This document shows, piece by piece, positions 10,637 to 58,475 of a DNA stretch of 64,000 nt. The DNA comes from Paramacrobiotus metropolitanus (Eukaryota; Tardigrada; Eutardigrada; Parachela; Macrobiotidae). The stretch spans positions 1,488,001-1,552,000 of the forward strand of contig NW_026570229.1 of the NCBI RefSeq assembly GCF_019649055.1, written 5' to 3'. The notes under the pieces were generated by a model. It was not told where the DNA came from, searched no databases, and worked only from the letters and a program-made list of their open reading frames with translations. How positions within the stretch are numbered: position 1 is the stretch's first letter; each line of letters begins with the position of its first letter. The position numbers were made by a program, and so were the translations under genes.

Positions 10637-10689
10637 TGTTTATAATTCTGCCTGCTAACTCAATCAACAAAACAAGGCGATTCCATCTT

Positions 10690-28660: not shown

Positions 28661-29329
28661 ATGGCTCGCCTGACCTTTATCCTCTTGTTGGCATTGACAA
28701 TCAGCTGCTGCTTTGCATCACCGCTTCTTCACGAATGGGATGGTGAAGGGACGGATGGGACAGATTGGGAGGATGAAAGCCACGAGGCGGTCAGTTTTCT
28801 AACTTTACCAGCTATTTCTTGAACAACCGTTCACCGTTGGTACCTTCTACTGATTAATTATGCAGGCATTCAGAGAATATATATAATGAAAAGTAGGATT
28901 AGAAACTGAGAATGCCTAATTTTTACGCAGAACTGCGCTTCTCTATTTCAAACGTTGTGCTGACGGTTTACACGTGATGGATGTATGCCTGTTGTGCACT
29001 GTCTGTTGATTTCATTTACAATACGTAATTTGAACCGCGGACCAATTGGCCATTTTTTAAATTTTTGTGCTACCTTCTGCTCTTTTGGAAGCGGAAACCA
29101 TTTACAGCAATCTGAGCACTGTGTGTTGTACCTGCTCCCTTGTTTACAGGTTTGTGTTATGTAGGTTATGGCTCCACTGATGCGAGCCAAGCGTGACGTG
29201 CTGAAGGGCTCCTGCGTGTGGGGTGCCACCGACTACAAGAGCGACTGCCTGGCCGAATGCAAACGCATGGGATACAAAGGAGGTCACTGCGGCAGTTTCC
29301 TCAACGTCAACTGCTGGTGTGAGCAGTGA
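28661..29329 (+). CDS. Invertebrate-type defensin precursor (CS-alpha-beta)
   Basis: Two exons, 28661-28789 (phase 0, donor GTCAGT) and 29165-29329 (acceptor ATGTAG, stop TGA), giving 97 residues. Residues 1-19 are a signal peptide ([19 protein letters not shown]). Next comes an acidic propeptide ([16 protein letters not shown]) and a dibasic furin-type site (MRAKR), leaving a mature peptide of about 46 residues. Six cysteines are spaced C-x10-C-x3-C-x9-C-x7-C-x-C, with the C-terminal [15 protein letters not shown] typical of arthropod/mollusc-type defensins that fold as a CS-alpha-beta motif with three disulfides. Members are secreted antimicrobial peptides that act on bacterial membranes or lipid II. 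The intron contains a SINE-like repeat. A nearer acceptor (TTTACAG at 29,139) would bring an in-frame stop, which decided the junction. The target spectrum cannot be inferred. Confidence 0.9.
28934..29058 (+). repeat. SINE-like dispersed repeat, copy 3 (defensin intron)
   Basis: GCGCTTCTCTATTTCAAACG, TTGTGCTGACGGTTTACACG, ATGCCTGTTGTGCACTGTCT, TGTTGATTT and TTTGAACCGCGGACCAATTG match the family in order. The B-box-like word is degraded here. Confidence 0.7.
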
Positions 29330-30082: not shown

Positions 30083-30310
30083 GGTGGTTATACAGTATGT
30101 TATGGCAGGTGATCTGGTGCATGGTACCAAACATCGTGTACATGCGCGAAAACGTTTACTTCGCGCAGCTCCAAAAACTTTTTTACTGTGTTTTATGGCA
30201 TTCTGTAGCCAAACGATTTGTATACTGTACACTTGCCAGGAAACCATATGCCTGTGCAAGATTCGGTTGCGGAGTTATGGCTGTGAGAAGCATCCAAACA
30301 GTTTAAAATG
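30083..30310 (+). repeat. Dispersed repeat family 2, copy
   Basis: CATGGTACCAAACATCGTGT, ACATGCGCGAAAACG, TTCGCGCAGCTCC, TTTTATGGCATTCTGTAGCC, AAACGATTTGTATACTGTAC and GGAGTTATGGCTGTGAGAAG follow the same order as 37,125-37,290 and the minus-strand unit 37,612-37,400. It also encodes short frames, which I take to be incidental. Confidence 0.7.
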
Positions 30311-30596
30311 CATTCAAATGTACAACAGTTTTTAAAACTGTAAAATAAATTTCAAAAGTTTCGAAATACTTGAATTAAGTGGTCATTTTCGTGCTGTCAT
30401 GGGAAAACTTTTATTTATTTCAAGTGGCATTTTGATCATGCTTCCGTCATTACACGTAATACTTTGGTTAATCTACAAAATGTACAAGGGCTCCGCCCAC
30501 TGCGACAACAACACGTGCTTCCATGACACATTCAGTCCTGCGCCGACATAATTACAATCTTTCAACAATCGCCGGAGGTTTTTTGGGCGGTGGGGT

Positions 30597-32363
30597 TTAC
30601 CTCCGGCCGGTGTAGGAGGAACTGCCATAAGTGCCGCTGCTTCCCGAACTTCCCGAACTTCCGGTGCTCCCCGAACTGCCCGAGCTACCGGTGTTGGAGA
30701 TAAAGGTGTTGCTGACGCTGTTTGAGAGCGGCGTTAATACCGGCGCACCGGCGGCAAACATCTGATTCAGTTCTGCAAGACGGAATAAGAGGCCGCCGTT
30801 AGGTAAAGGTCACAGATTTAATTGCATGGAACGTACGGTTAACGGGCACGATGACCATCCCGGGTGCTAACCCTTGGTAAAGGAGATAAGGACCACCGGT
30901 GCCTTGAGAAGCTGCAAAAATAGCATTTCCCGTTAATAACAATTTTGGGTTTAAGTTATAACTGCACCACCAGATGTATAATATACCAGTATAAAGACGT
31001 TAATTTATCCTTTATATGCTCGTTGTAGTCTTATTTTAAACGAATTTATGTAGCAATTGGACCAGCGCAATGCCTTTAAAAGATACCGTAACCATATCAT
31101 TTTTTGTTGTAAAAGGGTCTTAAGTGCTTTTCGTTGTCGGACTTACGCGGGGCGGAGCGAAACCAAAGACATACGCCAACTGCGACGGCAACGCCGCTGA
31201 GGACCCGCCCGACGACGATGAACCGGAACTCCCGCTGCTGCTGCCACTGGAGCTCCCGTAACTGGAGCCGTAGCTGGACTGCATGGCGTTACTCGATCCA
31301 TAAGACATGCCATATCCGGCCGTGGTCATCATGGCCGGGGTGGTCGTGACAACGGGCATTGTGGTAGGCTGGTAGACCGTTGTCATCGGTGGCTGGGTCA
31401 CTGGCGGCTGGGTCATCGGGGGCTGGGTAGGAGGAGGACCGCTGGGAGGAGGACCGGTGGGAGGAGGCCCGGTGGGAGGAGGACCGGAGGGAGGAGGTCC
31501 GCTGGGAGGAGGCCCGGTGGGAGGAGGCATGGTCATTGGGGGCTGTGTCATGGGGGGCTGCGTCATCGGGGGTTGGGTCGCCGGGGGCTGGGTGGGCGCC
31601 ATTGTCGATGCATAGCCGGCAACTACGACAGTGTTTCCGTTGAATAAGAAACGAAATTAGCTGGTAATTACTTAGATAATACAGTTATCTAATTACCAGC
31701 TACCATTCGCTTCGCGTATAAAGAAAGGAAAGCAAAGCATATACAAAAATACATTTTATAAAATATATAGTGTTTGAACTTTGAACGCAACGAGTCCCAG
31801 TTATGAAGTTTGAGGCAGGGCGCACGCTGCCATCAAATCAACCAAACACTCCAGGTAGGCAAATCACCGTTCGTATAGATTGGGCTTTCGAGTAAGCAAT
31901 GGAGTATATTATTCACTGTGCAAAAACGCAGCGCATGCTGGCACACAACGCTCGTCTGCTGCTTTTAAAAATGAAACTTTCAGATTTATTTCTGTTTTTT
32001 GGGTGCACACGTTGTGGGCGCCCTGTTGTGAAACAGCTGCTAAAAGATCTTATAAGCGACACTTTTAATATTCCGTAGACAGATTAATAAAATGACAGTA
32101 GGTTTTAAGGAAACCGGGACCTTAATACATGTAGAGTCAAATACAGTAAGTGAGAGTGTAGTGATACTCTTACCGGCAGCTTGTCGGGCTTCGAGACCGG
32201 AGAAGTAATCTTCGAGATCAGCAAGAGTGCCTACAGAACACAAAAGGCCGGCTTTTTTACAGTACATTCGACATTCCAATCGGCAGATACTGCACAACTT
32301 ACGAGCGTTAACTGAGCAGAAGAGGAACGTTAGGCAGGACAACTGGGATATTATGAACTTCAT
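30597..32363 (-). CDS. Secreted Pro/Ser/Gly-rich low-complexity protein (cluster gene B)
   Basis: Five minus-strand exons: 32363-32303, 32230-32174, 31622-31147, 30911-30837, 30772-30597. Exon 1 encodes a signal peptide (MKFIISQLSCLTFLFCSVNA) and ends in phase 1. Exon 2 gives TLADLEDYFSGLEARQAAG. Exon 3 is a run of proline repeats (TQPPMTQPPMT, then GPPPSGPPPTGPPP) followed by Thr-rich and Ser/Gly/Tyr segments (SYGSSYGSSSGSSSGSSG). Exon 4 reads GGPYLLYQGLAPGMVIVPVN and exon 5 a Ser/Gly tail ending SYTGRR. Genes A and C nearby share the layout: phase-1 signal exon, low-complexity body with SYGSS words, aromatic/hydrophobic patch, Arg-rich tail. Exon 3 ends in phase 0 while the sensible frame of exon 4 needs phase 1, so either a micro-exon (31,146-30,912) is missed or there is an indel. 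The function is unknown; a secreted structural, adhesive or cuticular role is inference. Confidence 0.75.
31658..31702. repeat. Near-perfect hairpin in gene B intron 2
   Basis: TAGCTGGTAATTA..TAGATAA (from 31,658) pairs with TTATCTAATTACCAGCTA (31,685-31,702), leaving a 2-nt bulge and a tiny loop. It lies 36 bp upstream (on the minus strand) of the exon 3 acceptor, so it would fold close to the branch-point region of the pre-mRNA. Confidence 0.6.
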
Positions 32364-32448
32364 GGTGGCGCTGCGAATTTCCCGGCTATTCCCTTAATAA
32401 AAAATATCACGATCCAACCACAAAGTTCATCCAGATAAAAAAATGCGT

Positions 32449-32456
32449 TATATAAG
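32449..32456 (-). promoter_or_regulatory. TATA-like box for cluster gene B
   Basis: CTTATATAACG on the minus strand, about 90 bp upstream of the gene B start codon. It fits a short-leader promoter; no other core element is visible. Confidence 0.35.
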
Positions 32457-32459
32457 TTT

Positions 32460-33180
32460 AACTGCTTTAATGCGATAATATTTCGAGATGAGTCGCGGCA
32501 ATAAAAAATGTGTTATAATGATTGGCGACGATGCGTAAGTGATGCTTTAAAAGGCCGGTCGTTTGCATGCCCATAATGTAATGCAGAGTTTTTTCAACGT
32601 TCGATGAAAAATAACCCCAAATTGCACAATGTATCTGTGCCGGTCGTTTTGAAGTTTGACGGTCCAGTTTTTCTTTGTCTCACAGTGATTATTGGCCCGG
32701 TGTATGCCACTTAATTGAACTTGTACGTACACGGGCAAGTTTGAGTCTAATTGCTAATTACACTTAGCCGTTACCGCTTCATTCGTCGGTGTCCACTATA
32801 CTTATTAATAAAGTCATATTTCAACGCCGTTTTAGAACTAGGTTAACACACTCGTGTTGAGAGTGCGTTTACTGTGAAAATTACTTTCGCTAAACATGAA
32901 CAACATACTGAACGATCGAACAAGCGTCCACAAAAGAGAGAACAAGAAGCCGACGGATTCGTTACATATAACTGTCAGGGTCATGCGCACCTATACACAT
33001 ACATTACACGCTCTGGCTATAAACATACATTACGTAACCGATACACTACTGTACATTAATCACCAATCAACATTACATTTATCCGGTAAACAAGAAAAGA
33101 TTTATTTACACTATGTACATGATTAATTCTCTATACAGGTTGCAGTAATCACAGGTTCCTTCGCTTGCTGCCGCATGCCT
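32460..33180. other. Spacer between cluster genes A and B
   Basis: The 720-bp interval holds the 3' end of gene A and the upstream region of gene B. No other feature is supported. Confidence 0.5.
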
Positions 33181-33183
33181 TCT

Positions 33184-35754
33184 TTATCGGCGACCCGATG
33201 TTAGCGGCAAATTCAATCCAAAGTACTTGTTAATATAGGATGGAACTGTAAAAAAAAAGAAATCGGACATCAGCATTATAATCTGGGAAATGCGATGATG
33301 GTAATAAATTATTGCAACAAGAGCACAAAACAAACGTAATATGGATACGGGTAATTAAGCTGTCAATCGTCTGCGGCTAATTTGTCAACCTACTTGGTAA
33401 GTATGGTGAAAAGATGAGCGGCGATGTCAACTGGCTGCTGGCATTCTGTGCGTACGGGAAGTACTGCACTTGGCTGTAGTAGCCGTACGGTACACCTGCA
33501 TAAGAAGCAATCGGATGCAGAGTTAATTATTGTTGTATGTTGTCTGCTCCTTTTGAAAGAACATGAATTAAGCCATAATACATAATGTCATTTGGCATAA
33601 TATGCTTCGATTAAACCTCATGTGGGCGATTAATGGTTGAGGAAGCAGCACGAACTTAACGACCGGCTAATAACCGTAACGTTCATTTGCCTAATTTCAC
33701 TAGCTAATTACGAGTAGTGCATGAACATAAAGCATAAAGGTCATGAAAAAATCAGGGAAATCACGGCAAAATGGAGGTACCTTAAAACTTTTATCACGGC
33801 TTTTATTTTAGGTACAAGGTACCTGGCTTAACACTTTTATTAAGACTTTTATTTTAGGTGACTTAAGACCCTTGTCAAGACTTTTATTTCAGATAACTTC
33901 GGAATTTTTTTACGGCTAACTCGAGATAATGCAGAGCCAGCTTTTCCTGTAACGTATGGAAAATTAATCATTCGTGTGGCTTACCTAAAGAGCTGCCGGA
34001 AGACGACGATGTTCCCGATGTTCCCGACGTTCCCGACGTTCCGGACGAAGTGCCACTGCTGCTGCCATAACCGGAAGACTGTGCATACGATGCTCCATAA
34101 CTGTAGCCCATGGTGGTCGTCTGCACCATGCTCGGCCGTGTCGTCGCGTAGTAGCTAGCGGTGGTGGGCGCCACGGTGGCGGCCACGGCGACAACGGCCT
34201 GCTTGTTGGTGGCGGGGGCATTGTGGGAGGCGTTGCGCTTATCCATGGCCCCGATCACCTTGGTCAAGGCGCCTACAAGCTTCTTGAAGGCTTCCGTCTC
34301 GGTGATGTTCAGGTGGCTGCTGATACTGGAGTTAGCTTTGGCTTCCTCGGCGACATGGGCGCCGGCGCCGGAGTCCACGGCGACCTTGGTTTCCGAGACC
34401 TTTTCCTCACTGTTTACAAAAAATTATCAGTTAATTGTCTTGGCGCAAAATTACTATACAAAGTGAATTCTACCGTACCTAACTACAAAACGACCCTTAA
34501 TATAATCAATTTCGTTTATTAAGGCTTTAGAAATGACTTTTTACTGAGAAACTTTATCAGTTCATCCATGACCTTTCTTTAGCTGCTTGGAACAATCTTC
34601 CGTTGATTTTCTTGGTGGAAACCCATACTACACTAGATGACCTTTACCCTTTAGAGCCCTTTAGAGCCTATAAAGTTCCGTTTAAGAAGCATTTAAAAAA
34701 GAGACCTTTAACTAAAAATCTAAGATCTTGTAAAGAGGCCTTAGGGTCTTATAAGAAGCTCATACACGGAATTTAGCGGATCAATCAAAAATTTTTAACA
34801 GTGATTTTTATGAAGCGAATTATGTACCTCTTCACAGGCGCGGCCGTTGTGGGCGCTTCCGTCGTCGTGGTTGTCGTTGTGGTGGTCGTCGTTGTCGTGG
34901 TGGGGGTTTCCTGCGTAGTGGCCGCCGCCGCCGCCATCGCTCCCAAATCCAAACCGGCGATCCCGGCGCCCCCGCGCAGGACATCACCGCCCGCGGGGCG
35001 GACGACATGGATGGAGGGATCCTCGGCGGGAATGACGACCTTTTCCTCCGGTTCCGGATTGGGCGCCAGCTGCTGGAGCAGAAGGGACATCAAGCTAGTC
35101 TGCCGCGGTGTGAGTGAGTTCAGCTCAAACGTATTCTCGTCTTGGCGGGGCTGGCGGAAAAAGTTCAGGAAAGAATTATCTGCAAAAATTTTAGAAAGTG
35201 TGAACCTTATTTGAAGATGTTCGCACGAAGACAATGTCTATTGTCTATATGTCATACGGAGGCGTTCACACGATAAAAAAAATTCTACCCTCCCATAGAT
35301 TTTAACAAATTTTATAAATGCCGCGCCAGTAAATACTACCTAAAAAACTGGAATTGCTTGGCTTTTTGATGTATACCTTTGCATATTTTCATATTTTAAA
35401 GCTGAAGGCTTAAACGATTTAAATTTAAATTTTTTGTAAAACGTACAAATTAGTACGCCTGTATATAATTATAATTGCAACTGGGAAGTAGTGTGCCTGC
35501 GCTTGAATTTTTTGCTATTTTGATGGCTGCTGCCTATCAAAAATACATATACATTACTGCCTTATATTACTTTAAAACGATGCGCGTTATAATACATCAG
35601 TTTTCATAAAATAATAAAAGAATAAAATTAATATGTATACCGTACATTTGTACAACATACAAAACACATGTATTTCTATGTAAAGGTCATCGGGCCTACC
35701 GCAAAATCCATTGGAAACCAGCGCAAGGATTAATATCACTAATACTGATGCCAT
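33184..35754 (-). CDS. Secreted Thr/Ser/Gly-rich low-complexity protein (cluster gene A)
   Basis: Five minus-strand exons with all phases consistent: 35754-35700, 35179-34828, 34409-33985, 33495-33394, 33245-33184; the product is 331 residues. Exon 1 encodes a signal peptide (MASVLVILILALVSNGFC) and ends in phase 1. Exon 2 gives NSFLNFFRQPRQDENTFELN then TPRQTSLMSLLLQQLAPNPE, and an uninterrupted run of about 14 Thr flanked by TEAPTTAAP, which looks like a mucin-type O-glycosylation tract. Exon 3 has a helical-looking segment (NITETEAFKKLVGALTKVIG), then SYGASYAQSSGYGSSSGTSS and Gly/Ser/Thr triplets. Exon 4 is aromatic (VPYGYYSQVQYFPYAQNASS). Exon 5 ends NKYFGLNLPLTSGRR. I recognise no known domain. 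The shared layout with genes B and C suggests tandem duplication with repeat expansion. A secreted matrix, cuticle or mucus role is inference. Confidence 0.82.
33781..33905. repeat. Degenerate tandem repeat in gene A intron 3
   Basis: Three units beginning CTTAA.AC or CTTAAGAC and containing AGACTTTTATTTTAGG-like cores; unit lengths are about 46, 35 and 35 bp. Confidence 0.5.
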
Positions 35755-36026
35755 TTTTCCTCGTGAGTAAATGTAACGAATACGGTTAATTCCGGATGCC
35801 GGTGTGAGGAAACAGCGGCTTGAATAAAGTAATCCGGAAACAGGAAAAGAATCGTCAGGCTCAGATCGGTCTGTCTAGGACACCATGAGCCGTGAGCTGG
35901 ATAATAGATATTCTACCAATGTATTAACCACTTTAAAGTGTAATTACCCGTGGTGTGCGCTTGAACTTGACGCCTCGGTGTAAATTGCAGAGCGTTCGGA
36001 CAAGCTGGCGACAAAACACCGCGGTC

Positions 36027-36034
36027 CTTTTATA
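36027..36034 (-). promoter_or_regulatory. TATA box for cluster gene A
   Basis: CGTTTTATAAAAGGACC on the minus strand gives TATAAAAG, 273 bp upstream of the start codon. It is in GC-richer context than its surroundings. The distance suggests a leader of about 240 nt or a leader intron. Confidence 0.45.
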
Positions 36035-36039
36035 AAACG

Positions 36040-36970
36040 GACGCCGGTACGAACGGCGAGCACGGAACACACGGTATTAATCAAGGGATTCTGTCGTGTA
36101 TATTTGCCATGACCACGTGGTGTGCGTTATATAATGTTCTGTGCGTTTCTACCTGTCTAATGCGTAAAGTGTGAATTTTACAGTTTGATTTTGCTGCGCG
36201 GGTAGAATTTTAAAGTTTAATCCGGTAGTTATTTGTTCCGCGGAGTACGTACGAAAATGTACAGCCGCACTGCAGTGATGTGCAGGCGCAGCGGTGTGTG
36301 GCAGCGTTTGACAGATTCGATCGTTCTTCGGTGTCCGTTGCTTTCTGTAAGAATTTCTTCGATGTCCGTTCGATGGCGCGATAACTCAACTACACTGTGC
36401 ATTCATATTCATTTTTGATTTTTCTATAATTATACTTGTACAGTGTACTATGCCAGTGCACAGTGTTCCATCGTGTGCGAGTATTTCCGTTATTTTCAAA
36501 GCAACACCTTCTTGGCCTTCTCACTTACATTGTGGCTACCAGTAGAAGCTGCACCGATCGAGAGCGGTTAAAACGGTAGTGACAGCGATGCTGTGGAAAA
36601 CTTTTCGGAATATTAAGATTTTTTAGCAAATGCCCTTTAAAGGTCAAGTCTTTCGCGCATTCCAGGCATTCTTCACACTATGGATCCGCTTACCGGGCAC
36701 TAGATGCACGATATTGCTCCACGTGACAAAAACTTTTCACAAACTGATTACGTGATAAATATTGTTTTTATACAAGCGTGTGCGCAAGATTCATAAACAA
36801 TTGCCAGTTTTTCTAATGTGGAAGTACGCATACCCTGTCTCTGATATCCGGCACGCGAATCCGTATTGTGAAACTCCGGAATCGATAAACATCGAAGTAC
36901 TGCAGGACTACTTCGACAAATGCCCTATCTGGGCTCCCTTTAGAGTACAGCCGCATATCTGGGCTCCCTT
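36040..36970. other. Stretch without a supported gene
   Basis: Only short frames. A 31-bp-spaced direct repeat TATCTGGGCTCCCTT occurs at about 36,926 and 36,957, next to a large foldback. Confidence 0.5.
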
Positions 36971-36973
36971 CTA

Positions 36974-37114
36974 GTTAAAACAGCCGCAAAACTGCAAGTG
37001 CTAATGCAACCGCGCACGAAGGCGGTTGCCCATACTGTCAATACTGCCGGAAGTGTGCGCAACCGACCTTTTGCGCGGTTACATTAGTACTTGCAGTTTC
37101 TTAGCCGTTTTAAG
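36974..37114. repeat. Foldback element with arms of about 58 bp
   Basis: The left arm (36,974-37,030: TTAAAACAGCCGCAAAACTG, CAAGTGCTAATGCAACCGCG) is matched by the reverse complement of the right arm (37,055-37,114: GCGCGGTTACATTAGTACTT, GCAGTTTCTTAGCCGTTTTA) with a few mismatches and a spacer of about 24 bp. It directly abuts dispersed repeat family 2 at 37,115. Confidence 0.75.
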
Positions 37115-37395
37115 GGAAGCGGCCCGGTACATATGGTACCAAGTTCGTGTACATGCACGAAATGTTTCACTTTCGCGCACTCCCAAACCCTTTTTTCTCT
37201 TGTTTTATGACATTCTGTAGCCAAACGATTCGTATACACTGGCCCTAAAATTGTTTGCGCGCGCAACATCCGGTTGGTGAATTTTAAAATTTGAAAAAAA
37301 TCGTGGAAGTCTGGACGGTGTAAAAACGATCTTCATGGCCATGTGCATTTACGTGCAAAATTTGAAAGAGATTGGTTCGTAATGAGACTTTGGGT
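37115..37395 (+). repeat. Dispersed repeat family 2, plus-strand unit of inverted pair
   Basis: GGAAGCGGCCCGGTACATAT, GGTACCAAGTTCGTGTACAT, CACTTTCGCGCACTCCCAAA, GACATTCTGTAGCCAAACGA, GTTTGCGCGCGCAACATCCG, then ACGATCTTCATGGCCATGTG. It matches the copies at 9,978-11,075 and 30,083-30,310 in order. Confidence 0.75.
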
Positions 37396-37399
37396 ACAC

Positions 37400-37612
37400 C
37401 GGAATGCATTTAAAGTTTTTGGAATTTTCTAACAGCCATAACTCCCGAACCGGATGTTGCGCGCACAAACTGTTTTCACGCCTGTGTATACAAATCATCT
37501 GGCTACAGAATGCCACAAACCGAAACAAAAATGTGCTTGCGAGTGCGCGAAAGTGACAGTTTCCGTGCATGTACACGAATTTGGTACCATGTACCGGGCC
37601 ACTTTCCTTAAC
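37400..37612 (-). repeat. Dispersed repeat family 2, minus-strand unit of inverted pair
   Basis: Read on the minus strand from 37,612: GGAAAGTGGCCCGGTACATG, GTACCAAATTCGTGTACATG, TCACTTTCGCGCACTCGC, TGGCATTCTGTAGCC, GTTTGTGCGCGCAACATCCG, GGAGTTATGGCTG. It faces the plus-strand unit head-out, forming an imperfect palindrome of about 500 bp. Confidence 0.75.
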
Positions 37613-37614
37613 TA

Positions 37615-38990
37615 GAGATATGCGCCTGTTCTAAAATTTTCCTTTTATTCGGCAATGGCCACCTCGTAGATTAAAAAGCCAGCGCTAGTACGTACACACG
37701 AATTAAAATGATAGAAATTTAAACGTTAAAAAAACAACCATGATCATTGATTGTTGTACGAAAATTTATCCCGTGCATTCACGCCTGTTCTCTGTTCTAC
37801 ATGTATTTAGGGAACCCAGATAAGGCATTTGTCGAAGTACTCGTAGTGCTTTTCTTACAGCGTCTCGATGCTTTCTTGATAAAAAATGGATGTTTTCCGT
37901 AAGCGAACTTTCAGGGAACGTGACGTTATTAAACCACCTATCTGTGTATCCATTAATTATTGGTGTCAAATAAACGCGCTCAAGCCGCTGAGATGCTACT
38001 AACATAATACTGGTTTATTATTATTACGGTACAAGAGCAGAACAACCCAAAACGGACTTCCAGGTCAATGTTAAACTGCAGTAAAGTAGTAGGAATTTTA
38101 AGGCAGGTACAGAAGTGGCATCGAGAATTTTAGGGTTAAAACTTAAAAGTCAGGTCAGCGTTTTCCGTTGAGTAGACTCGTGCATTGTGCAGTGGAATAT
38201 TTTTTAATCACTCATGGCTGCGTTGCGTATAAAACGGGACTGATTATTGCCTATTGGATGCCGGAGTGAACGAGTTTTTTGCCAGATTTATTCTTACCCC
38301 AATCCCGATTGTACAGTAAATATATGGTAAATAATTATTACGTGGATTGGAAAATATCGTAGTGAGGTGGCCGTTAGCAGGATAATGTTTTCTCCGCGCT
38401 AGCCGTTACTAATGACCACACGCTGCAAAGTGTTGCTATCTAACATTTCACAACTTTTTTTCACTTCAATGTCGATTCAGTTTGTTAGGAAGAATGTATT
38501 TTAAATTATTTCTGGGAGCAAGGAGTTAGCGCTGCTGCATGGTTTTTTTCATTACCGGTGGTTTTAACTACACTTGAATCAATCAAGCGCGGGACATTGC
38601 GTGATAATGCAGTGAGATGGCGTAATTCGCTGTACAAGCAATACTGTGGAATAAGCCAGCGATAGCTGTTACACGATCGAATACACAATGAGGATAACTG
38701 CACAATAAATATTATACGAGTATTCCAGCTCCCAGTTGGTTCATGATTACAATGATCTGTTTTTCTTGATAAGCAAACAAACACTGCAAAAACATTAGCG
38801 AAAAACGCAGCTAGAATGAATTACTTAACATTTCAAAAGTCCAGTATTGCATCTCAAGCTATACCCATATCTGACCGAGCCAGCTCAGTCGCCAAAATCT
38901 TACAAATAAATTACTTCCCACATGTTATTCGGCTTGACCTTGTGTTATCGCATCGCAGATACGATTGATCGATCATAAAAATTTTCTGAC
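37615..38990. other. Stretch without a supported gene
   Basis: No motif, splice-consistent frame or repeat recognised on either strand. Confidence 0.5.
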
Positions 38991-38992
38991 AT

Positions 38993-41985
38993 TCACCGGA
39001 AGAGGGGCAGCACTTGACGACGCCGGCGTCCGTAGCCGGAGGAAGGCGAAGGCGATGGGGAGGAGCCGTAGGAGTAGGATGTTCCCGTCATGGTGCCGGT
39101 GGACGTGCCGGTCATGGTTCCGGTGCCCGTCGAGGTGGATCCGGCCGGGCTGGACTGCACGGCATAGGCTACGTTCAGGCCGGGCGAGACGACGCTGGCC
39201 GGGGCGGGGCCGGGCACGGACAGACCGATGCCGGCTTGACCCAAACCGTTGATACTTCCTGTAATGTTAGACAAAAACAAAATTATTTTTCACTGCACAG
39301 CTGGTCAATTTTCAGTTTAAGCTAAAGCCAGGTAACATCTCGAAATAATTATTTGAGAAAATAATCAATAATGGGTACTAGCAAACACAAACACAAATAC
39401 TAGCAAACAACTGCATCAAAAAATGTTTCCTGAAATAATTTTTGTAACGAGCTTAATGCAGTTGGTTTAAAAACTAGATCAATACGCGGTAAAACTAAAA
39501 AAAACACGGACATGGTCTATGCTTCAGTTGAATAATAAAATCAACAAAAAGTGTGCAACAGGAACACATCCGATGCGCAAAATCGTCAGCACCGATTTCG
39601 AACAGCGATATGCATTAAACGAAGCGTCTGATTTTTAGGACTTCGGTCGTACAATATGCCGAAGGGTGATTGGTCAAAAAATTTGTTCTTTCGGGTTCGA
39701 AAGGGAGCGAAGTTATTAGAACAAGACCAATCCGCGCCACGAAACATAGCATGTCGGTCATCTTACCTCCATAAGCCGCATAGAAGACGCTGGAATTCAG
39801 CACCGTCAATCCAGACAGATTGGGAACGGTAACCGTCGATACCGAGGAGACGGTGGTGGCCGACGTGCTGCTGGTGGTGTTGGTTGTGTTGGTCGAAGTG
39901 GTGACGTCGCCCCACGAGGCCAGACGGTAGGGGTAAGGTGCCCACCAAGCGGCGGCCGCCACGTCCACGGCGTTGGACAGGTTGAGGGCCCCACCGACCC
40001 CGTTGACGGGGGTGACGTAGGTGTTCAGCGGGTAGAAGTTGGAGTGGTTGTAGTAGTAGTCGCGGCTGGCGTCGTAGTCGTTGGCGTACACCCCGTACTG
40101 GTACTTGGGCGCGGCATAGTTGAAGACGGCCGACGAGGGCAGCGAGGAGAGGAAGTTGGTGCTGGTGACGCTGGTGGTGCCGGTCGAGGTGTTGGTGACG
40201 GTGCTCACCACGCCGGTGGGGGTGTAGCTGGCGTTGCCGACGGTCACCGGGACGGAGAGCAGTGGCAGATTGACTGGAAAAATTATTAATAATTATTGTT
40301 ATTATTATTATTGTTGCTACTGTCATTATTATTATTGTTCCTTTCATTATTTTTATTACTGTTATCCTGCTTATAATAAGTGCCACTGAGTTTTTGATAG
40401 TTTATTACGTAGTTTCCTGCCGGAAAACAGTACACGCTTGTTACTAAAATTAATTATTATTGATTACTTTTATCACAACTTACGTTAGTCATCACAACGT
40501 TAGCTGTAAATATAAGAAGAGACCGCCAGGCCGCGAAGCCTGCGCGGTATCGCATCGAAGCATTTCATATACTTCGATTCAGAATTCTCACGACTATACC
40601 ACTGCTGTAAAATTAATTAGGCTAGGAGGTGATACCTGAACATCCAGTACCGTCTTATCAAACGGTTTAATACGCATCAAATCACATATCCTCCTTTTAT
40701 CCAGCTTAGTCGTGCAAAATTATGTCTAGAGTAGTATTCGACTACGTCAGCTTGTCTACGTAACAGTCGAAGTCGAAGCACGTTTCTACGCATTTTTCTA
40801 ATAGCAATTTTATTTGATAAAGGTTATCCATAATTATTTAATTACTCCCCGCATTCTTAACTTGATACCGGCAAACTTCAACCGGTCCACGGCATTAGTA
40901 CTACTACTTTTACCGTATGTATTACGCTCTGGTACTTGTATTAATTCGCGGCGTTTTAATACAAGTACCACAGCGTAATATATACGGTAAATAATATTTT
41001 CAAACGCTGAATACGATTCTGATTGGCACGAGCCGTTGATTTATCGCCGACCTCAAGTAGAACGGCGTCGACGTCGGCCGAATGTTTGTGTGACCTAATA
41101 AAGCCTCGGCGATCTTTGTCCAAGATTTTAGTCAACATTATTAATTTTTTCTGATACCACTGGCACACGGAAACAGTAATGGATTTCTCATGTCACAACC
41201 TAAATGGATTCCATTGGGTAAATAAACAAATGCATACTATAGAAGACTAAGCTAAAACAATATGATTAAGAAAAACTAAACTGTAAACAAATCTCTTCAT
41301 AATTTGATGCGGGAGATGTTTTCGATGTAATCAATTGCTGGTTTCGGTTGCTGGATTACGCTCGCGATGCCAATTGGCTTGGTTCAGTTTTTAAGGACAT
41401 GATGATCTCAAGTAGCCCAGTCAGCTCTTGACCGCTCTCCTAGCGCAGTATGAAGCAAAAATTTTTTGCACTTTTGTTTACAATTTTCTGGAGGCAACAG
41501 CATAACTTTTGAAAAACTCTACTTTTGTCCGCCAACCGGACACTTTTCGCGTGGCCGGCATAAGCGTTCGAAAGTCCAAAATGTACAATGCATTCTTTTA
41601 AAGCAAAATATTTTTACTCTAATTACGGTAAAAAATGCAGTAGTACAGAAAGATATTTAAATAAAGAAACCATGCAGTGGAATATTTCCTAGGCTAAATC
41701 AACCAATCAGAAGCGTTTCGTTCGGATTAACGAAATATTAATACTAATCAGCATTAATTTACATTGTACTGGTTCTTAGGAAAAACGGTGAAAACGGGTA
41801 CTGCACTAACTTGAAGGATAGGAGACGGAGCTAGCCGGCGACGCCGACATGGAGGAGGAGGAGGAAGAGGGACTACTGTAGCTGGATCCATAGCTGGTGG
41901 AGCTGCTTCCATAGGACTGCGCCGCACCCAGCTGCAGCCTGCATAATGCCGCCAGAATAATCAGGGATGTTCGCTGCGCCATCAT
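38993..41985 (-). CDS. Secreted Ser/Tyr/Thr/Gly-rich low-complexity protein (cluster gene C)
   Basis: Three minus-strand exons with consistent phases: 41985-41811, 40273-39767, 39258-38993; the product is about 315 residues. Translation from the double Met gives a signal peptide (TSLIILAALCRLQLGAAQ) followed at once by SYGSSSTSYGSSYSSPSSSS. A Met ten codons upstream (42,015) is also possible. Exon 2 is less repetitive: LPLLSVPVTVGNASYTPTGV, KYQYGVYANDYDASRDYYYN, WWAPYPYRLASWGDV, then Thr-rich and STVTVPNLSGLTVLN. Exon 3 is Gly/Ala/Val-rich with TGTMTGTSTGTMTGTSYSYG and ends GYGRRRRQVLPLFR, a tetra-Arg site that a furin-like protease could cut. Like genes A and B, exon 1 ends in phase 1, the body has SYGSS words and the C-terminus has a GRR. 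No known domain is recognised. The role is unknown; a tyrosine-rich secreted matrix or adhesive protein is inference. Confidence 0.82.
39515..39612 (-). repeat. SINE-like dispersed repeat, copy 4 (gene C intron 2)
   Basis: On the minus strand: CTGTTCGAAATCGGTGCTGA, CGATTTTGCGCATCGGATGT, GTTCCTGTTGCACAC, TTTGTTGATTTTATTATTCA. It is the best match to copy 1 in the family but lies in reverse orientation. Confidence 0.75.
40278..40375. repeat. ATT/TTA microsatellite in gene C intron 1
   Basis: Imperfect (TTA)n/(ATT)n tract immediately upstream (minus strand) of the exon 2 acceptor, so it overlaps the polypyrimidine/branch region. Confidence 0.8.
40909..40991. repeat. Foldback element with 35-bp arms in gene C intron 1
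   Basis: The left arm (40,909-40,943: TTTACCGTATGTATTACGCT, CTGGTACTTGTATTA) and right arm (40,957-40,991: TAATACAAGTACCACAGCGT, AATATATACGGTAAA) are reverse complements with about three mismatches across a 13-nt loop. It fits a MITE remnant or a small foldback element. Confidence 0.8.
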
Positions 41986-47997: not shown

Positions 47998-50900
47998 ATG
48001 CTCTTGCCCCGCACCCCCGAAGAGTGGCAGCCGCTGAGAATGGCGCAGTTCCTCAACGGACACTTGGAGAACGTGGGGAAGGTGGTGAAGAAGAAGCTGA
48101 AGAAGGCGCTGGCCTTCAAGGATCTCGAGCGGGAGGACAGTTTCGTCTGGCCGCCCCGGGAGGGCGGGGAGGGGGAGACGGTGGTGACGCCCTTCTCCTA
48201 CCACTACCAGCCCTCCGTCGCCGACTTCTTCATCATGGCCGCCATGCTGCCCATCCTGCCGCTGCGCATGCTGCTGGCCGGGATCGCCATTTTAGTCGCC
48301 TGGTTGGCGGCCAAAGCGGCGCTCTACAATATGCCGCCCCAAGTGAGTACCCCGTTTTACCTGTTAAAAAAACTACATGACAATTTGGTTTACGCCTGGA
48401 GACATCCCGGAATTATCTGGTATTTTAAAATTGAATTATGGGAATTTTTTAGCTAGATATCTTCTGGTAATTAAGATCGTTGATCAGGGATAAAATGTTC
48501 GAAAATAACCAGTAAATTTTATAGGTACTGTTATTGCGCAGATTTCAGTTTTCGGATTCTAATTTTACCGTTCAGAAGATGGAAATTTTGGTGAGAGATT
48601 TATTTGTGATTTTTTCAGCTACCAAAACACTGTTACCATTTTTTTTTAAATTATAAGAAAAAGCGAAAAATGCCTGTGTTTGAGTAAGGTTGGGAATTAC
48701 AATTTGTTAGCAAATTTTTCATTTAAAAGAAAACTAAAAAGATTATAAAAAAATATCTGAAAGGATGGGTTTGTCGGGCGGCTTAGTACTGCATTTTGAC
48801 AAAAAGGCTAAGAAATAAAATTCAAGTACTTAGCAGTTTTTTAAATTATGAGAAAAGGCAGATAATGTATTAAAAAACAGTAGGATGGTTTTGTCGGATG
48901 GCTTGAGAATTTTATTGGACGGTTAAACAGTAAAATTGGGAATTTCGAATATTTAATTGTGCAGATGTATACAATTCTCGTCTGGTGTACAAATTTTCCA
49001 CAAGACGGAGCGCGTTAATTCCGTATTGATTTTATTTAAACGATTTGACCGTAGTCTTTCCACTGAGAGGGAAAAATCGGGTTGGGTTTTGTTTGCAAGC
49101 GCTAGTCTTGGAAAATGAGAGAAAGCGGAGGCGGTAGTCAAAAGCGGAAAAGGTTTTTGCGGTGTCTCTATCCTTCCGGGATAAGTGTTGTTGTCCGTCT
49201 GTCTAGCTACACTCTCTCACATGACGCATGTATTGATCGCTCCTGAGGCGGAAGCGTGCTCGAGCAGTTTTCCAGTGAGTGGAAAGTGCCTAATAGTCGT
49301 CGCTCGTTATGCTAATGCCAGACGAGCTTGAATATCACCACACACACAGACGGCGTCAACATGCCCTGTTATTCCCTGTTAATGCACTTCCGCCTGTGCG
49401 TTATTAGGTGGCCAACGCGGCGCCCTTCACCGGCTGGCGTCACGGCTGCCGCGTGATCATCCTGGCCTGTGCGCGCCTGCTGTTCTTCGCCTGCGCCATC
49501 CAGCGGATTGAGTACGTCGGGGAGACCAAGTTCCAGGAATCGGCGGTGGCGCCGGTGCTCATCTGTGCGCCGCACGTGTCCTACCTGGACGCCTTCATCT
49601 CGGGGGTCATGTCCATCATGCCGGTGATGAAGGCGCAGGCGGCCAAGGCGCCCTTCTTTGGACCGTTTCTCACCGCGCTGCAGCCTATCTATGTCGATCG
49701 GGAGATTCGCGAAAGGTACAGAAATATATTAATTGCATTTTATATTTGTTTCCAATTTTTTTTATTTATATTTTTGATCTGGGTTTCTTAAAAATCGGTT
49801 TGAAGGTGTACACGGCAGATATTTTATGCAATTTTGTTCATTTATATTGTAATGGGGTGGCTTTAAGATTTTTTTGGCGATTTAACAAATTAATTTTTGC
49901 AGTTTTTCTAATTTTCTAATATTGTCCTATTTTTTGTTTCCGATTTTTTATTAATATTTTTATCTGGATTTCTTAAACTTTGGCTGGGACTGCTGGGAGT
50001 TATAAATGGCAGATATTTTATTTATACAATTTGTTTATTTATATTTTATTTTTGCAATTGAGTGGCTTTAAGAATTTTCTGCAATTTTGCAAAATGATTT
50101 TTGCAGTTTTTGCGCACATTTTTAAAAATGTTTATCGCTATAATTTCTGATTGTTTACGTATGGAATACGTGGAATTATAGAGAAGTAGTTTGTCTCAAC
50201 GTGGACAAAATAGTAGACGTAGTTGGCAGATCGTAATTTGCGCCGTAGGGGAAATTGTTGACGTTTTTACCGGAATTTTTGTCAGAACGATGTTGTGGTG
50301 CGGGTTTCAAACGGCGCTGACACGCGGCGTTCGCGACAGCCTTCTTCTCGCTGCACTGTGTGGAATTTCTTGTTTATAGTTTTTTTCTTATTTTGTGTTT
50401 GGCTTCTTACTTTTTTGGGATCGTATTTCTATACTACAACGAGAAAACATGCTGTTTGACAGTGTTTGTGCAATTAAAACTGTTTTGTGCTCATTTTATC
50501 TGCAATCAGTGTTACTGCCTTGTTGGCAGAAAAACTTCTAAAATTTATTTGCGAAATTTATTTTGGAAAATTATACATTAACAGATTAACTTCTTATGCT
50601 CCATGTAATATAAAATATAAAAATGAGAATTTGATGAAGTTTTACGGTTTGGGTAAAGCCCTTAAGACACTTGTTAGGAAATTTGATACTTTTTGAGTTA
50701 TTCAAGTGCACTCAGCACTGCGGCCAGTCTTAGCTGAGTTAGCAGTAAAAACGTCGACGCTCGGCTGATTTTCTGTTTTGAGTACGTTCACATTTTCTAA
50801 TAAATTTTCTGTATAACAATGACAATTATTTTTGTACTAATAATTTTTCATTTTTGCTCTGCAGCCGCACCAGTACCAATGACACCCTGAATTTGTTTAT

Positions 50901-51453
50901 AATCATATGATGACATGTACTCGTATTTACAATTTTCACCAACAATGTCCGCTGTTATAAGATTTTTGCTGATATCTAATATTTCCTGTACAGCCGCACC
51001 AATACCAAAGACACGCTAATCAAGCGCTGCTCGGACGAGAAGGGCGTCTGGCCGCCGGTCCTCATCTTCCCCGAGGGCACCACCTCCAACGGGCAGTGCC
51101 TGTTCAAATTCAAACTGGGCGCCTTCTACCCCGGCCAGCCCATCCAGATGACCAGCATCGAGTACCGCAGCTGCATGTCCACCTGGAATCCCCTGATCAT
51201 GGCCTGGGACCCCGCTGTCCCCGTGTGGGTCAGCATCCTCTACCTCTTCCTGCAGCCCCACATCACGGCGCGCATCCACATCCAGCCGGTGTACCATCCC
51301 AGCCCCGAGGAGCGCGAGGATCCGCAGTTGTTCGCCCACAATGTGCAGAAGCAGATGAGTGAGTACCTGGACATCCCCGCCACGGATTTCACCTACGAGA
51401 ATGTGCGGGAGTTTTTACGGGCGCGCCGGGCGGCCAAACGGAAGAGCACGTAG
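47998..51453 (+). CDS. LPCAT-like lysophospholipid/1-acylglycerol-phosphate acyltransferase
   Basis: Three exons with consistent phases: 47998-48342, 49408-49715, 50994-51453; the product is 371 residues. Exon 1 encodes a basic N-terminus (KVVKKKLKKALAFKD) and a hydrophobic segment (MAAMLPILPLRMLLAGIAIL). Exon 2 has acyltransferase motif 1, APHVSYLDAF (H-x4-D catalytic pair), and the motif LQPIYVDREIRER. Exon 3 has FPEGTTSNGQCLFKFKLGAF (motif III, E-G-T) and a motif IV-like segment YPGQPIQMTSIEYR, then PVYHPSPEEREDPQLFAHNV as in human LPCAT1/2. Such enzymes sit in the ER or lipid-droplet membrane and transfer acyl groups from acyl-CoA to lysophospholipids. The protein ends about 40 residues past that region, so the EF-hand half of LPCAT1/2 is absent, and the C-terminus is basic (RARRAAKRKST). 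AATAAA signals lie at 51,626 and 51,642. The terminal exon is repeated 1,323 bp downstream. Confidence 0.9.
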
Positions 51454-51695
51454 ATCGTGGTGGTGTTGGCGTTGTTTTGTTGTGTTATTAATTCGGTTTT
51501 CTTGTGGCGGTTATGTTTGATTGGGGTCGGTTGTTCTTGTCGATTCATCATGTTCCTGTGGATGGGGATGGCAGTCAGCGGCGTTTATTCTGGCATTTTT
51601 TGTTCTGAATATTACTATACATTTCAATAAATATCTCCAATAATAAATTTGCGAGCGGTATCGGAATTTTGCCACAGTATTTTGCTGCCTATTTC
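50372..51695 (+). repeat. 1,323-bp tandem duplication, copy 1
   Basis: Contains the end of LPCAT intron 2, the terminal exon, the stop, 3' UTR and poly(A) signals. The following copy starts where this one ends. Confidence 0.95.
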
Positions 51696-53018
51696 TGTTT
51701 ATAATTTTTTCTTATTTTGTGTTTGGCTTCTTACTTTTTGGAATCGTATTTCTATACTACAACGAGAAAACATGCTGTTTGACAGTGTTTGTGCAATTAA
51801 AACTGTTTTGTGCTCATTTTATCTGCAATCAGTGTTACTGCCTTGTTGGCAGAAAAACTTCTAAAATTTATTTGCGAAATTTATTTTGGAAAATTATACA
51901 TTAACAGATTAACTTCTTATGCTCCATGTAATATAAAATATAAAAATGAGAATTTGATGAAGTTTTACGGTTTGGGTAAAGCCCTTAAGACACTTGTTAG
52001 GAAATTTGATACTTTTTGAGTTATTCAAGTGCACTCAGCACTGCGGCCAGCCTTAGCTGAGTTTGCAATAAAAACGTCGACGCTCGGCTGATTTTCTGTT
52101 TTGAGTACGTTCACATTTTCTAATAAATTTTCTGTATAACAATGACAATTATTTTTGTACTAATAATTTTTCATTTTTGCTCTGCAGCCGCACCAGTACC
52201 AATGACACCCTGAATTTGTTTATAATCATATGATGACATGTACTCGTATTTACAATTTTCACCAACAATGTCCGCTGTTATAAGATTTTTGCTGATATCT
52301 AATATTTCCTGTACAGCCGCACCAATACCAAAGACACGCTAATCAAGCGCTGCTCGGACGAGAAGGGCGTCTGGCCGCCGGTCCTCATCTTCCCCGAGGG
52401 CACCACCTCCAACGGGCAGTGCCTGTTCAAATTCAAACTGGGCGCCTTCTACCCCGGCCAGCCCATCCAGATGACCAGCATCGAGTACCGCAGCTGCATG
52501 TCCACCTGGAATCCCCTGATCATGGCCTGGGACCCCGCTGTCCCCGTGTGGGTCAGCATCCTCTACCTCTTCCTGCAGCCCCACATCACGGCGCGCATCC
52601 ACATCCAGCCGGTGTACCATCCCAGCCCCGAGGAGCGCGAGGATCCGCAGTTGTTCGCCCACAATGTGCAGAAGCAGATGAGTGAGTACCTGGACATCCC
52701 CGCCACGGATTTCACCTACGAGAATGTGCGGGAGTTTTTACGGGCGCGCCGGGCGGCCAAACGGAAGAGCACGTAGATCGTGGTGGTGTTGGCGTTGTTT
52801 TGTTGTGTTATTAATTCGGTTTTCTTGTGGCGGTTATGTTTGATTGGGGTCGGTTGTTCTTGTCGATTCATCATGTTCCTGTGGATGGGGATGGCAGTCA
52901 GCGGCGTTTATTCTGGCATTTTTTGTTCTGAATATTACTATACATTTCAATAAATATCTCCAATAATAAATTTGCGAGCGGTATCGGAATTTTGCCACAG
53001 TATTTTGCTGCCTATTTC
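51696..53018 (+). repeat. 1,323-bp tandem duplication, copy 2
   Basis: Nearly identical to copy 1. The differences I see are confined to the intron part (T-run lengths near 51,710, CTTAGCTGAGTTTGCAATAA versus CTTAGCTGAGTTAGCAGTAA near 52,050). The exon and 3' UTR appear identical. Confidence 0.95.
52317..52776 (+). CDS. Duplicated LPCAT-like terminal exon
   Basis: An identical copy of exon 50994-51453 with the same TGTACAG acceptor, stop and downstream AATAAA signals. It lacks exons 1-2, so it cannot be a separate gene. It could serve as an alternative terminal exon of the same gene (identical protein, different 3' end), be silent, or be an assembly duplicate of one allele. Confidence 0.7.
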
Positions 53019-53019
53019 T

Positions 53020-55155
53020 ATATAATAATAAATTGTTTTATTACCATATTATTACTTTTTTATAATTTTATTACTATATTATTTTTGTTTAATGCTATCT
53101 TAGTATTCTGCAAGCAAGACAGTTGCATTGCACTTCACTCTTCCGGTGAAAAGACACCGTAAAAACGACTGACAGTGAGAAATATAGACAATATTATAGA
53201 GGTATATCAAAACATATTTTTTCCCCTGAAAACCTTATGTGCCTATTGGCTGCTAGAAACTCACAATTAAGCATAAATTTAAAAAAAAGCAATGGAAGCC
53301 AACCCCCAAAGGGTTCACTAATTCGCTTGTGTTGTTGATTTGTAGTTTTTCGAAGTACTAGTACAGTGTCTTTGGCATGTCCTCCTGACTCGTACATATC
53401 TGATGCATGTAAAAGGCGTGTCCCGGCTCCTTGCTGCAACAGCTTGCCGTCGCCTTATTCTACTCGTCGCTAACCGTTGGAATACATTGATTTAGGAGAG
53501 ACACTGGGTACCGACGTGGATCGCCACAAAATTCAAACTGATTACAATCATAAATCAAGTGATACCAAAAGCATGTACAGAGTACAAGCCGGATGATTAA
53601 TTCCTTGCGAATTGTGTTTGTATTTTCTCTATCTTTACGCAGGAAATAAAAATTATGATAGAATATCGATCATCGGGCTGAATTATTATTGATGAATAAA
53701 TGAGCAAACATATTAAGGATGCGATACTAAGAGCAGAAGTTATTTTGTAACCAGTAGATAATATATTACAAGCCCAGCACGGATGGATATTGGCCGATGA
53801 CTATTAAAAAATAAGTAATTCCAAGGATGTGTTGCTTTTGCGGCCGCTTACAGACTGTCATAATATTATCAATAAACCCGTACGTATGTTTAGTAATATT
53901 ATGATACACTTTACATAAGTTAATCGAAACACGAACTGTCTCCTTGTACATACAGTATATAACTTGCAATGATGACTAACGTGTTAAGTGACATGAATTT
54001 TTTACTTGTATTGTATACTCGTACTTATTGTTAAGTGGCAGCTCAGATAATATTAATTCTACTGTTCTGGGTCAAGTTGTGCTAGAACAGTGTGCATTTC
54101 TTATCGTGTCCATGGTAACAAGCTTAAGATTGACCACTGGACCTAAACAAGCGATTTTGGAAAAAAGTCATCAATCTTGGATCCACCGCTACACTTAAAA
54201 AATTTTGATGTACTAGTACTTTAAAGCAACAAAATTGGTGAAGTGGAAGCCGAGATGCTTTGCCTCAAAGGACAGGGGCCGAAGTCCTGGCCCAGATATT
54301 CAGTATTCAAATAACTACGAGTAGAACTAGATAATAATAAGTACTGTACTGTATCTATATCGTATTTATATTATATATCAACCTTTATTGAGTTCCGTTT
54401 GCTGTTATGCGGCAAAAAACCCCTATTACAAATTAGGGGAAAAGGCACGCATAACCTATTCTTTTTTAAAGGTTTTGTAAACAAAACTCGCGCAACGGAA
54501 GCATCAATAAGGTAAAAGACCGCTTGCTCTCCTCTACATTACACATGAATCTTTTTTTTGGTAGTTTTAGAGAAGGAGCTATAGAATACAGAGATTATAA
54601 GAGTATATTATGTGGAAAGGACGATCACAATACAATTATGCGGGGTGTATGGCAAGCAACAATGCAACACACACCAACCACATATAAAATGAGCAAAATT
54701 AATAAACACACATCCATGCACCGTTCTTCGATGGAGACCGGGAGCGTCTTTGGGTGGTTTGCGCTTGGTGGTTACGTCGGCTGCACACTGTTACCGAGAA
54801 GCGAGTAGGGATAAAACGAGTCAGTGTGAAAGCGAGAGAGACGTAGAACAGAGAGAGTCAGTCAAAGATTCGACGGCAGTGGAATTACGGTGAGTGTAAA
54901 CGCACTAGCTGATTACGACAAACATAAGGTTCGATTTAACTTTCGCACACTCTCCAATGTAGCAATGTAGCAACGAAACCGATTTTTCCAACATTACATC
55001 GAAGTTTCTTCATAAACTTATGAAAACGTGAAAGTTTTTCAGATTTCACTATAAGACTATTTGTCAGACACCAAAATATGACTTCAGTTAAGTTTTGAAA
55101 AAAACTGAAATTTCAAAAAAATATGGAATATTAATTATTAAAATTATTTTGCACT
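53020..55155. other. Stretch without a supported gene
   Basis: AT-rich. A short tRNA-like stretch near 54,245-54,295 (AGTGGAAGCCGAGATGC, GGGGCCGAAGTCCTGG) does not fold into a cloverleaf by eye. A GA-rich tract lies at 54,820-54,870. No gene called. Confidence 0.5.
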
Positions 55156-58289: not shown

Positions 58290-58475
58290 TTTTTTTAAAA
58301 ATAATAATTCGCTAATACAAATAATAATAATAATATGATCGGATGATCACGAACGGGAGAGCAAGGGTGATTGGGTGGAATATTGGCAAATTTCCGTCGG
58401 AAACGCCGAATATTGGGCAATCACACGTTGAACGATGAAGTTAAGCAGTCTAACCGAAAGCGAGCAGCACGGTGC

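What the first reader, a model, noticed from the sequence alone, without database searches (positions are those of the whole stretch)
30597..41985. Three-gene tandem cluster of secreted low-complexity proteins with shared exon architecture
Genes B, A and C lie head-to-tail on the minus strand. Each has a signal-peptide exon ending in phase 1, a Ser/Gly/Tyr-rich body with SYGSS words, an expanded homopolymer or repeat block of a different type (Pro in B, poly-Thr in A, Tyr/Thr in C) and an Arg-rich C-terminus (GRR). I recognise no known domain. This looks like a lineage-specific family of extracellular matrix, adhesive, cuticular or mucus proteins made by duplication followed by separate repeat expansion. 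The shared layout is seen directly; the role is inferred.
Basis: partly seen in the sequence, partly recalled or inferred. Interest (0 to 1): 0.75.

Follow-up and report, generated by a model that had tools for sequence, protein, structure and literature searches.

The report
Tardigrade low-complexity secreted protein cluster
Three neighbouring tardigrade genes seem to make secreted, unstructured, tyrosine- and serine-rich proteins that probably help build an outer covering such as cuticle or eggshell; such clusters are already known from insects, so this is a new example of a known kind.

Summary
Three minus-strand genes can be modelled with GT-AG introns: C (41985-38993, 315 aa), A (35754-33184, 331 aa), B (32363-30597, 269 aa). 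Each starts with a hydrophobic signal-like segment, has cysteine only there, is 44-61% Ser/Thr/Gly/Pro/Tyr, and has GRR at or near its end. No Pfam family reached its cut-off. The genome is a eutardigrade's, probably Paramacrobiotus metropolitanus.

Limits: C's first exon runs about 35 codons past the signal segment. Exact SYGSS is absent from A. C has no clear expanded block. "One family" holds only in part: A and B share an ordered Thr-rich/SYG/GSS module, also seen in an unlinked gene (D, contig C6), beyond local-shuffle and reversed controls but not under composition-adjusted blastp. C's tests against A, B and D are negative or mixed. Phase-1 introns near signal peptides are a general animal trend.

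Best reading: secreted, disordered, cysteine-free structural proteins of an apical matrix, possibly Tyr-cross-linked. Drosophila has closely similar clusters (PMC2932725). New member of a known kind; modest interest. Function is inferred; no expression data were available.

The parts
41811..41985 (-). Gene C exon 1: signal-like N-terminus plus SYGSS-rich start of the mature protein; ends in phase 1
   Evidence: donor gttagt
39767..40273 (-). Gene C exon 2: Tyr/Asn/Thr-rich body with all 8 N-glycosylation sequons of C; 1-1 phase exon
   Evidence: fold without alignment gave mean pLDDT 30.3
38993..39258 (-). Gene C exon 3: SYGSS and Ser/Pro tail ending GYGRRRRQVLPLFR, stop
35700..35754 (-). Gene A exon 1: signal-like exon (18 codons), phase 1
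34828..35179 (-). Gene A exon 2: RQPRQ (RxxR|Q, convertase-like) site, charged part, run of 14 Thr
33985..34409 (-). Gene A exon 3: charged NITETEAFKKLVGAL part, then the Thr/Met-SYG-GSS/GTS module shared with B and D
33394..33495 (-). Gene A exon 4: Tyr/aromatic segment (YGYYSQVQYFPY...SPYLP)
33184..33245 (-). Gene A exon 5: ends LTSGRR, stop
32303..32363 (-). Gene B exon 1: signal-like exon (20 codons), phase 1
32174..32230 (-). Gene B exon 2: short acidic part with EARQ; 1-1 phase exon
31147..31622 (-). Gene B exon 3: PPPTG/PPPSG block, then the Thr/Met-GYG-SYGSS-GSS module
30872..30911 (-). Gene B exon 4: short exon that keeps the frame (donor gttagc); acceptor 30902 scores equally
30597..30772 (-). 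Gene B exon 5: GSS-rich tail ending TYGSSSYTGRR, stop

Best explanation
A, B and C encode secreted, intrinsically disordered, cysteine-free structural proteins of an extracellular (apical) matrix of a eutardigrade, most likely cuticle or eggshell, or possibly a glandular adhesive or lining. Shown: gene models, hydrophobic N-termini, composition, cysteine only in the signal segment, no known domain. Inferred: after the signal peptide is removed, basic sites (RQPRQ in A, EARQ in B, the GRR ends, RRRR in C) are trimmed by proprotein convertases as matrix proteins are laid down. Ser/Gly/Thr/Pro stretches keep the chains soluble and flexible, and spaced Tyr in YGSS words supply contacts or di-tyrosine/quinone cross-links. 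A and B probably come from one ancestral gene that also gave rise to unlinked gene D. C may be a diverged copy or an unrelated gene of the same make-up.
For: Models with GT-AG introns and GC-rich third positions. S+T+G+P+Y 43.8% (A), 60.6% (B), 55.6% (C); Cys only at residues 18, 10/16 and 15. No Pfam family above its cut-off (B without its last two exons). Mixed synonymous codons in the poly-Thr run and at the Gly of the PPP[TS]G units, as expected if the protein and not only the DNA repeat is kept. The A-B and B-D module beats local shuffles (0 of 400; 1 of 400 for the whole proteins, 0 of 300 for the D tail) and reversed controls (158 v 85; 310 v 222). D has the same plan: signal-like start (by eye), RRVRQ, 23 SYGSS words, Pro and Thr blocks, GSS tail. 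Drosophila clusters of three to ten such genes, cysteine almost only in the signal peptide, were suggested to be secreted structural proteins (PMC2932725 section 9). In C. [quoted passage not shown] N-terminal RxxR sites are common in C. elegans cuticle collagens, 109 of 173 (PMC10538796 passage).
Against: No expression, proteomic or comparative data were available, so tissue and role are inferred from composition. A-B relatedness vanishes under composition-adjusted blastp and once S/T/G/P-rich stretches are masked. A-D by local shuffles is weak (38 of 400; 12 of 300 for the tail). D's tail as query finds B only at E 0.057, and D's N-terminal part finds only D. C is not clearly tied to A or B. 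B lacks an RxxR site. Tyr content of A and B is modest (4.2% and 3.7%). GYR and YGD motifs are absent from A-D; YLP occurs once, in A. Only C exon 2 was folded, without an alignment, so its low confidence is weak evidence of disorder.
Confidence: 0.6

Rival explanations
1. Mucin-like glycoproteins: the Ser/Thr/Pro stretches are densely O-glycosylated and the proteins line gut, buccal tube or body surface as mucus, rather than being built into a solid matrix.
For: High Ser+Thr, run of 14 Thr in A, Thr/Pro blocks in B. C has 8 N-glycosylation sequons, A has 4.
Against: No cysteine-rich end domains of gel-forming mucins (recalled feature); Cys only in the signal segment. Sequon numbers do not exceed shuffles in C (mean 5.3, p 0.13) or A (mean 3.4, p 0.44), and B has none. 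Tyr-rich YGSS words are not typical of mucins (recalled).
Confidence: 0.2
2. Pro-peptide precursors: basic sites plus C-terminal GRR (canonical convertase/carboxypeptidase/amidation signal, recalled) release amidated peptides, and the low-complexity parts are only spacers.
For: GRR is the very end of A and B, and GRRRR lies 7 residues before the end of C. RQ dipeptides are over-represented in A (3 v 0.35 expected, p 0.0055).
Against: RQ is not enriched in B (p 0.24) or C (p 0.19); the GRR coincidence was not tested against a background. No repeated peptide copies between basic sites as in most multi-peptide precursors. D lacks GRR. The would-be amidated ends (TS, YT, GY) differ between the three.
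Confidence: 0.06
3. The trio is not a family: three (or C at least) independently born low-complexity secreted genes share only composition, proximity and the common phase-1 intron.
For: No blastp match between A, B and C at E <= 10 with composition adjustment, seg on or off. C v A at shuffle level, C v B mixed. No blastn match between the genes at E <= 1e-10 in a self-comparison of the window. Phase-1 introns near signal peptides are common (PMC1626468). Drosophila clusters likewise lack recognisable homology (PMC2932725).
Against: A-B and B-D beat local-shuffle and reversed controls. A and B both have signal-only first exons and end in GRR. C-D exceeds most local shuffles (10 of 400 reach it) and its reversed score (133 v 92).
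Confidence: 0.4

Closest known systems
[quoted passage not shown] section 9 read whole, other passages seen)
   Same: Three or more genes less than 10 kb apart, signal peptides, low complexity, no Pfam domain, cysteine (almost) only in the signal peptide, members align poorly.
   Different: Found there through GYR/YLP-like motifs, which are essentially absent here (one YLP in A). Those are usually Gly- or Pro-rich; here Ser/Tyr/Thr are prominent. GRR at or near the C-terminus; a tardigrade.
Nematode epicuticlins (EPIC-1; PMC9612446, abstract and passages seen)
   Same: Signal peptide, intrinsic disorder, repeated Tyr motifs, proposed di-tyrosine cross-linking.
   Different: Common to them are the GYR and YGD motifs; both absent from A-D.
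C. [quoted passage not shown]
   Same: Low-complexity secreted disordered protein families of an ecdysozoan cuticle.
   Different: No sequence comparison was made; expression timing is known there and unknown here.
Gene D and the C23 genes of the same genome (L011; L030, L037, L038)
   Same: SYGSS words, Pro/Thr/Ser blocks; secreted-type start in D.
   Different: D is unlinked, 785 aa, without GRR. The C23 proteins carry an extra, by eye helical, cysteine-bearing repeat with no Pfam or PDB match; a signal peptide for them was not established.

Membership tests
[quoted passage not shown]
   Gaps 3,238 and 820 bp
Low-complexity secreted gene clusters as in Drosophila (PMC2932725) | Signal peptide and no Pfam domain | tested here: met
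   Hydrophobic N-termini (hydropathy only, no SignalP; thin margin in B); no Pfam family above cut-off, B scanned without its last two exons
Low-complexity secreted gene clusters as in Drosophila (PMC2932725) | Cysteine confined to the signal peptide | tested here: met
   Cys at A18, B10, B16, C15 only
GYR/YLP motif cuticular proteins (PF02756, PF02757) | GYR or YLP motif | tested here: not met
   No Pfam hit in A, B (part) or C; letters GYR 0 in A-D, YLP once in A
Nematode epicuticlins | GYR and YGD motifs | tested here: not met
   Both 0 in A-D
Arthropod CPR or Tweedle cuticular proteins | Conserved Pfam domain of the family | tested here: not met
   None in the Pfam scan up to E = 1 (B without its last two exons)
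One paralogous family A+B+C | Sequence similarity beyond composition | tested here: inconclusive
   A-B yes by local shuffles and reversal, no by composition-adjusted blastp; C v A no, C v B mixed
Cuticle or eggshell component | Presence in the structure or expression in the secreting cells | not testable with these tools
   No transcript or proteome data held

The most novel reading that the evidence does not exclude
The trio and gene D belong to a eutardigrade-specific system of convertase-processed, cysteine-free Tyr/Ser matrix proteins. A, B and C would share a C-terminal Gly-Arg-Arg processing (possibly amidation) signal, and the system would arise by duplication followed by replacement of nearly all sequence by new repeats. 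It would thus be a catchable intermediate for the unexplained origin of low-complexity secreted gene clusters, and among the first molecularly defined building blocks of tardigrade cuticle or ornamented eggshell.
Probability: 0.15. Interest if true: 0.55.

Novelty: new member of a known kind. Interest (0 to 1): 0.33.

Why it matters
The protein make-up of tardigrade cuticle and eggshell seems little described. Six searches of the held library listed no paper reporting such proteins, judged from titles and the starts of abstracts; three of the lists were capped (15 of 21, 15 of 108 and 15 of 1,170 papers), and subscription papers are missing there, so this is no proof of absence. If confirmed, these genes give named candidates for tissue localisation. 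They also bear on a stated puzzle, the origin of low-complexity secreted gene clusters (PMC2932725): here two members (A, B) still seem to show a common module, and an unlinked sibling (D) exists.

Tried and rejected
Known domains: Pfam gave only sub-threshold compositional hits (B: Extensin_1 22.8 v cut-off 105 bits; C: New_glue 11.7 v 31; A: Dicty_REP 9.3 v 21). PDB sequence search of parts of A and C gave nothing below E 0.1. Fold of C exon 2 without an alignment: mean pLDDT 30.3, so no fold search was made.

Other relatives in the genome: most of A exon 2, A exons 4-5, B exon 5, C exon 2 and C exon 3 found only themselves at E <= 0.1. Of these, A exon 2, C exon 2 and C exon 3 had five weaker outside hits (E 0.3 to 2.4); I translated the ones on C62 and C49 and saw no convincing relative, and did not follow up the other three. 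A exon 3 found itself and B (E 0.02). For B exon 3 (6 matches) the C38 hit (E 0.15) lies opposite a longer open frame and was dropped; C20 (E 0.78) and a second C6 site (E 4.1) were not followed up. Nor was the C102 hit of D's tail (E 0.52). The pattern for YGSSYGSS gave 13 sites (0 for the backward control): 5 read YGSSYGSS in frame (B, D, the C23 gene, C46, C49). The C46 and C49 sites lie in no low-complexity frame of 60 aa or more with two such words within the 8 kb read, and were dropped.

Gene C v the C23 gene: alike by eye but at shuffle level (116 v 114.6, 176 of 400; reversed 126). B v C23 likewise (167 of 400), though reversed scores less (107 v 138). A v C23: 6 of 400 local shuffles reach it, but reversed scores as high (126 v 124), so not claimed. 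D v C23 was left out of the shuffle test. My first enumeration of B splice paths used a wrong length for the last exon; one search replaces it.
Full report
WHERE IT IS. The window is G000:C9:1488001-1552000 of a 169.8 Mb, 533-contig genome. The size fits the 170 Mbp reported for Paramacrobiotus metropolitanus (PMC11191345, passages seen); the species is therefore probable, not proven.

GENES. Reading the minus strand gives three genes in the order C, A, B. C: exons 41985-41811, 40273-39767, 39258-38993; 315 aa; intron phases 1,1. A: 35754-35700, 35179-34828, 34409-33985, 33495-33394, 33245-33184; 331 aa; phases 1,2,1,1. B: my first model ran into stops after 30911. An enumeration of GT and GC donors gave 363 in-frame routes; the joint best GT-AG ones (score 18.5 on a simple consensus count of my own) use donor 31147 and donor 30872 (AGG|GTTAGC), with acceptor 30911 or 30902. 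I took 30911. B is then 32363-32303, 32230-32174, 31622-31147, 30911-30872, 30772-30597; 269 aa; phases 1,1,0,1. Two GC-donor routes scored 19.0, so B's middle remains a model. Third codon positions are GC-rich against AT-rich introns in all three genes.

PROTEINS. All three have hydrophobic N-termini (only slightly above the internal maximum in B) and cysteine only there. Ser+Thr+Gly+Pro+Tyr make up 43.8% of A, 60.6% of B and 55.6% of C. B holds a 15-bp PPP[TS]G array, A a run of 14 Thr, with mixed synonymous codons. A and B end in GRR; C ends GRRRRQVLPLFR. RxxR followed by Q occurs in A, C and D, not B; RQ is over-represented in A (3 v 0.35, p 0.0055) and marginally in D (p 0.047), but not in B or C. 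No Pfam family passes its cut-off (B was scanned without its last two exons).

ARE THEY ONE FAMILY? A and B align over a Thr/Met-rich, SYG, GSS module: score 158 against 98.6 +/- 9.9 for shuffles within 10-residue blocks, 0 of 400 reaching it, and 85 when one is reversed. B (without its last two exons) and the tail of D do as well (277 v 230.8 +/- 13.7, 0 of 300). A-D is weak (38 of 400; reversed 87 v 120). But blastp with composition adjustment gives no match between A, B, C and D except an A-D one at E 2.8, in the signal-peptide region, and masking S/T/G/P-rich stretches leaves nothing between these four. C against A is at shuffle level (142 of 400). C against B is mixed: 81 of 400 with full B, 5 of 300 with B lacking its last two exons, reversed 82 v 86. 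C against D is suggestive (10 of 400, reversed 92 v 133), but 41 of 300 against D's tail alone. So A-B-D relatedness is likely but not proven, and C is unplaced. At the DNA level the window self-comparison shows no match between the genes at E <= 1e-10, so there is no sign of recent duplication.

THE WIDER SET. Gene D lies on contig C6 (L011): exons 7177-6913, 6440-6351 and 6066-4064 of the locus, 785 aa, both introns phase 1, 83% S/T/G/P/Y, 23 SYGSS words. B exon 3 finds it at E 4.4e-7; in the other direction D's tail finds B only at E 0.057. Over A-D, 10 of 12 modelled introns are phase 1. A second set of low-complexity genes lies on C23: one domain query matches at 718945, 729271 and 745157, all on the plus strand. 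The domain has no Pfam or PDB match, and a signal peptide for these genes was not established. Clusters of low-complexity genes thus occur at least twice in this genome; that is too few to put a rate on it.

INTRON PHASE. PMC1626468 (abstract and passages) reports an excess of phase-1 introns at signal-peptide cleavage sites and phase 1 as the commonest phase in proteins with signal peptides. The shared phase 1 of exon 1 is therefore weak evidence of common descent. Only A and B have it right after the signal segment; in C it lies in codon 59, after 58 full codons.

WHAT IT DOES. The best reading is disordered structural protein of an apical matrix (cuticle, eggshell or gland secretion). It rests on analogy: Drosophila clusters with the same features (PMC2932725 section 9), nematode epicuticlins (PMC9612446, passages) and pharyngeal cuticle disordered proteins (PMC9629831, passages). 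Membership in GYR/YLP or epicuticlin families fails on motifs. A mucin-like role, and less likely a peptide-precursor role, remain open.

VERDICT. Likely real genes, sound observation with corrections, interpretation partly supported; a new member of a known kind with unknown tissue and role.

Noticed in passing
window 28661-29329, + strand: A likely CS-alpha-beta defensin precursor in two exon-like frames (joined by eye, splice sites not tested): a signal-like start, then ...MRAKR followed by a six-cysteine domain. Pfam Defensin_2 19.8 bits, just under its 20.4 cut-off. CS-alpha-beta sequences are already reported from Hypsibius and Milnesium (PMC5116183 passages).
   Followed up: partly
window 50365-53029: A 1.34-kb near-identical (99.2%) tandem duplication holding an acyltransferase-like frame (Acyltransferase 20 bits, under the cut-off of 23): a recent duplication or an assembly artefact.
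   Followed up: partly
window 37110-37612; also 30099-30323 and 10684-10930: A foldback (inverted-repeat) element of about 500 bp between genes C and A, with related pieces just downstream of B and at 10.7 kb.
   Followed up: partly
L030, L037, L038 (contig C23, about 718.9-745.5 kb): Low-complexity proteins with an uncharacterised, by eye alpha-helical, cysteine-bearing repeat between Ser/Tyr/Pro-rich linkers; no Pfam or PDB match. They may deserve their own study as silk-like or matrix proteins.
   Followed up: partly
window 55161-58346, - strand: LINE-like adjacent open frames: one with a reverse transcriptase (RVT_1, above cut-off), one with a zf-RVT match under its cut-off.
   Followed up: no
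window 227-1515: A 90-bp minisatellite with about 10-12 copies, open in several frames.
   Followed up: no
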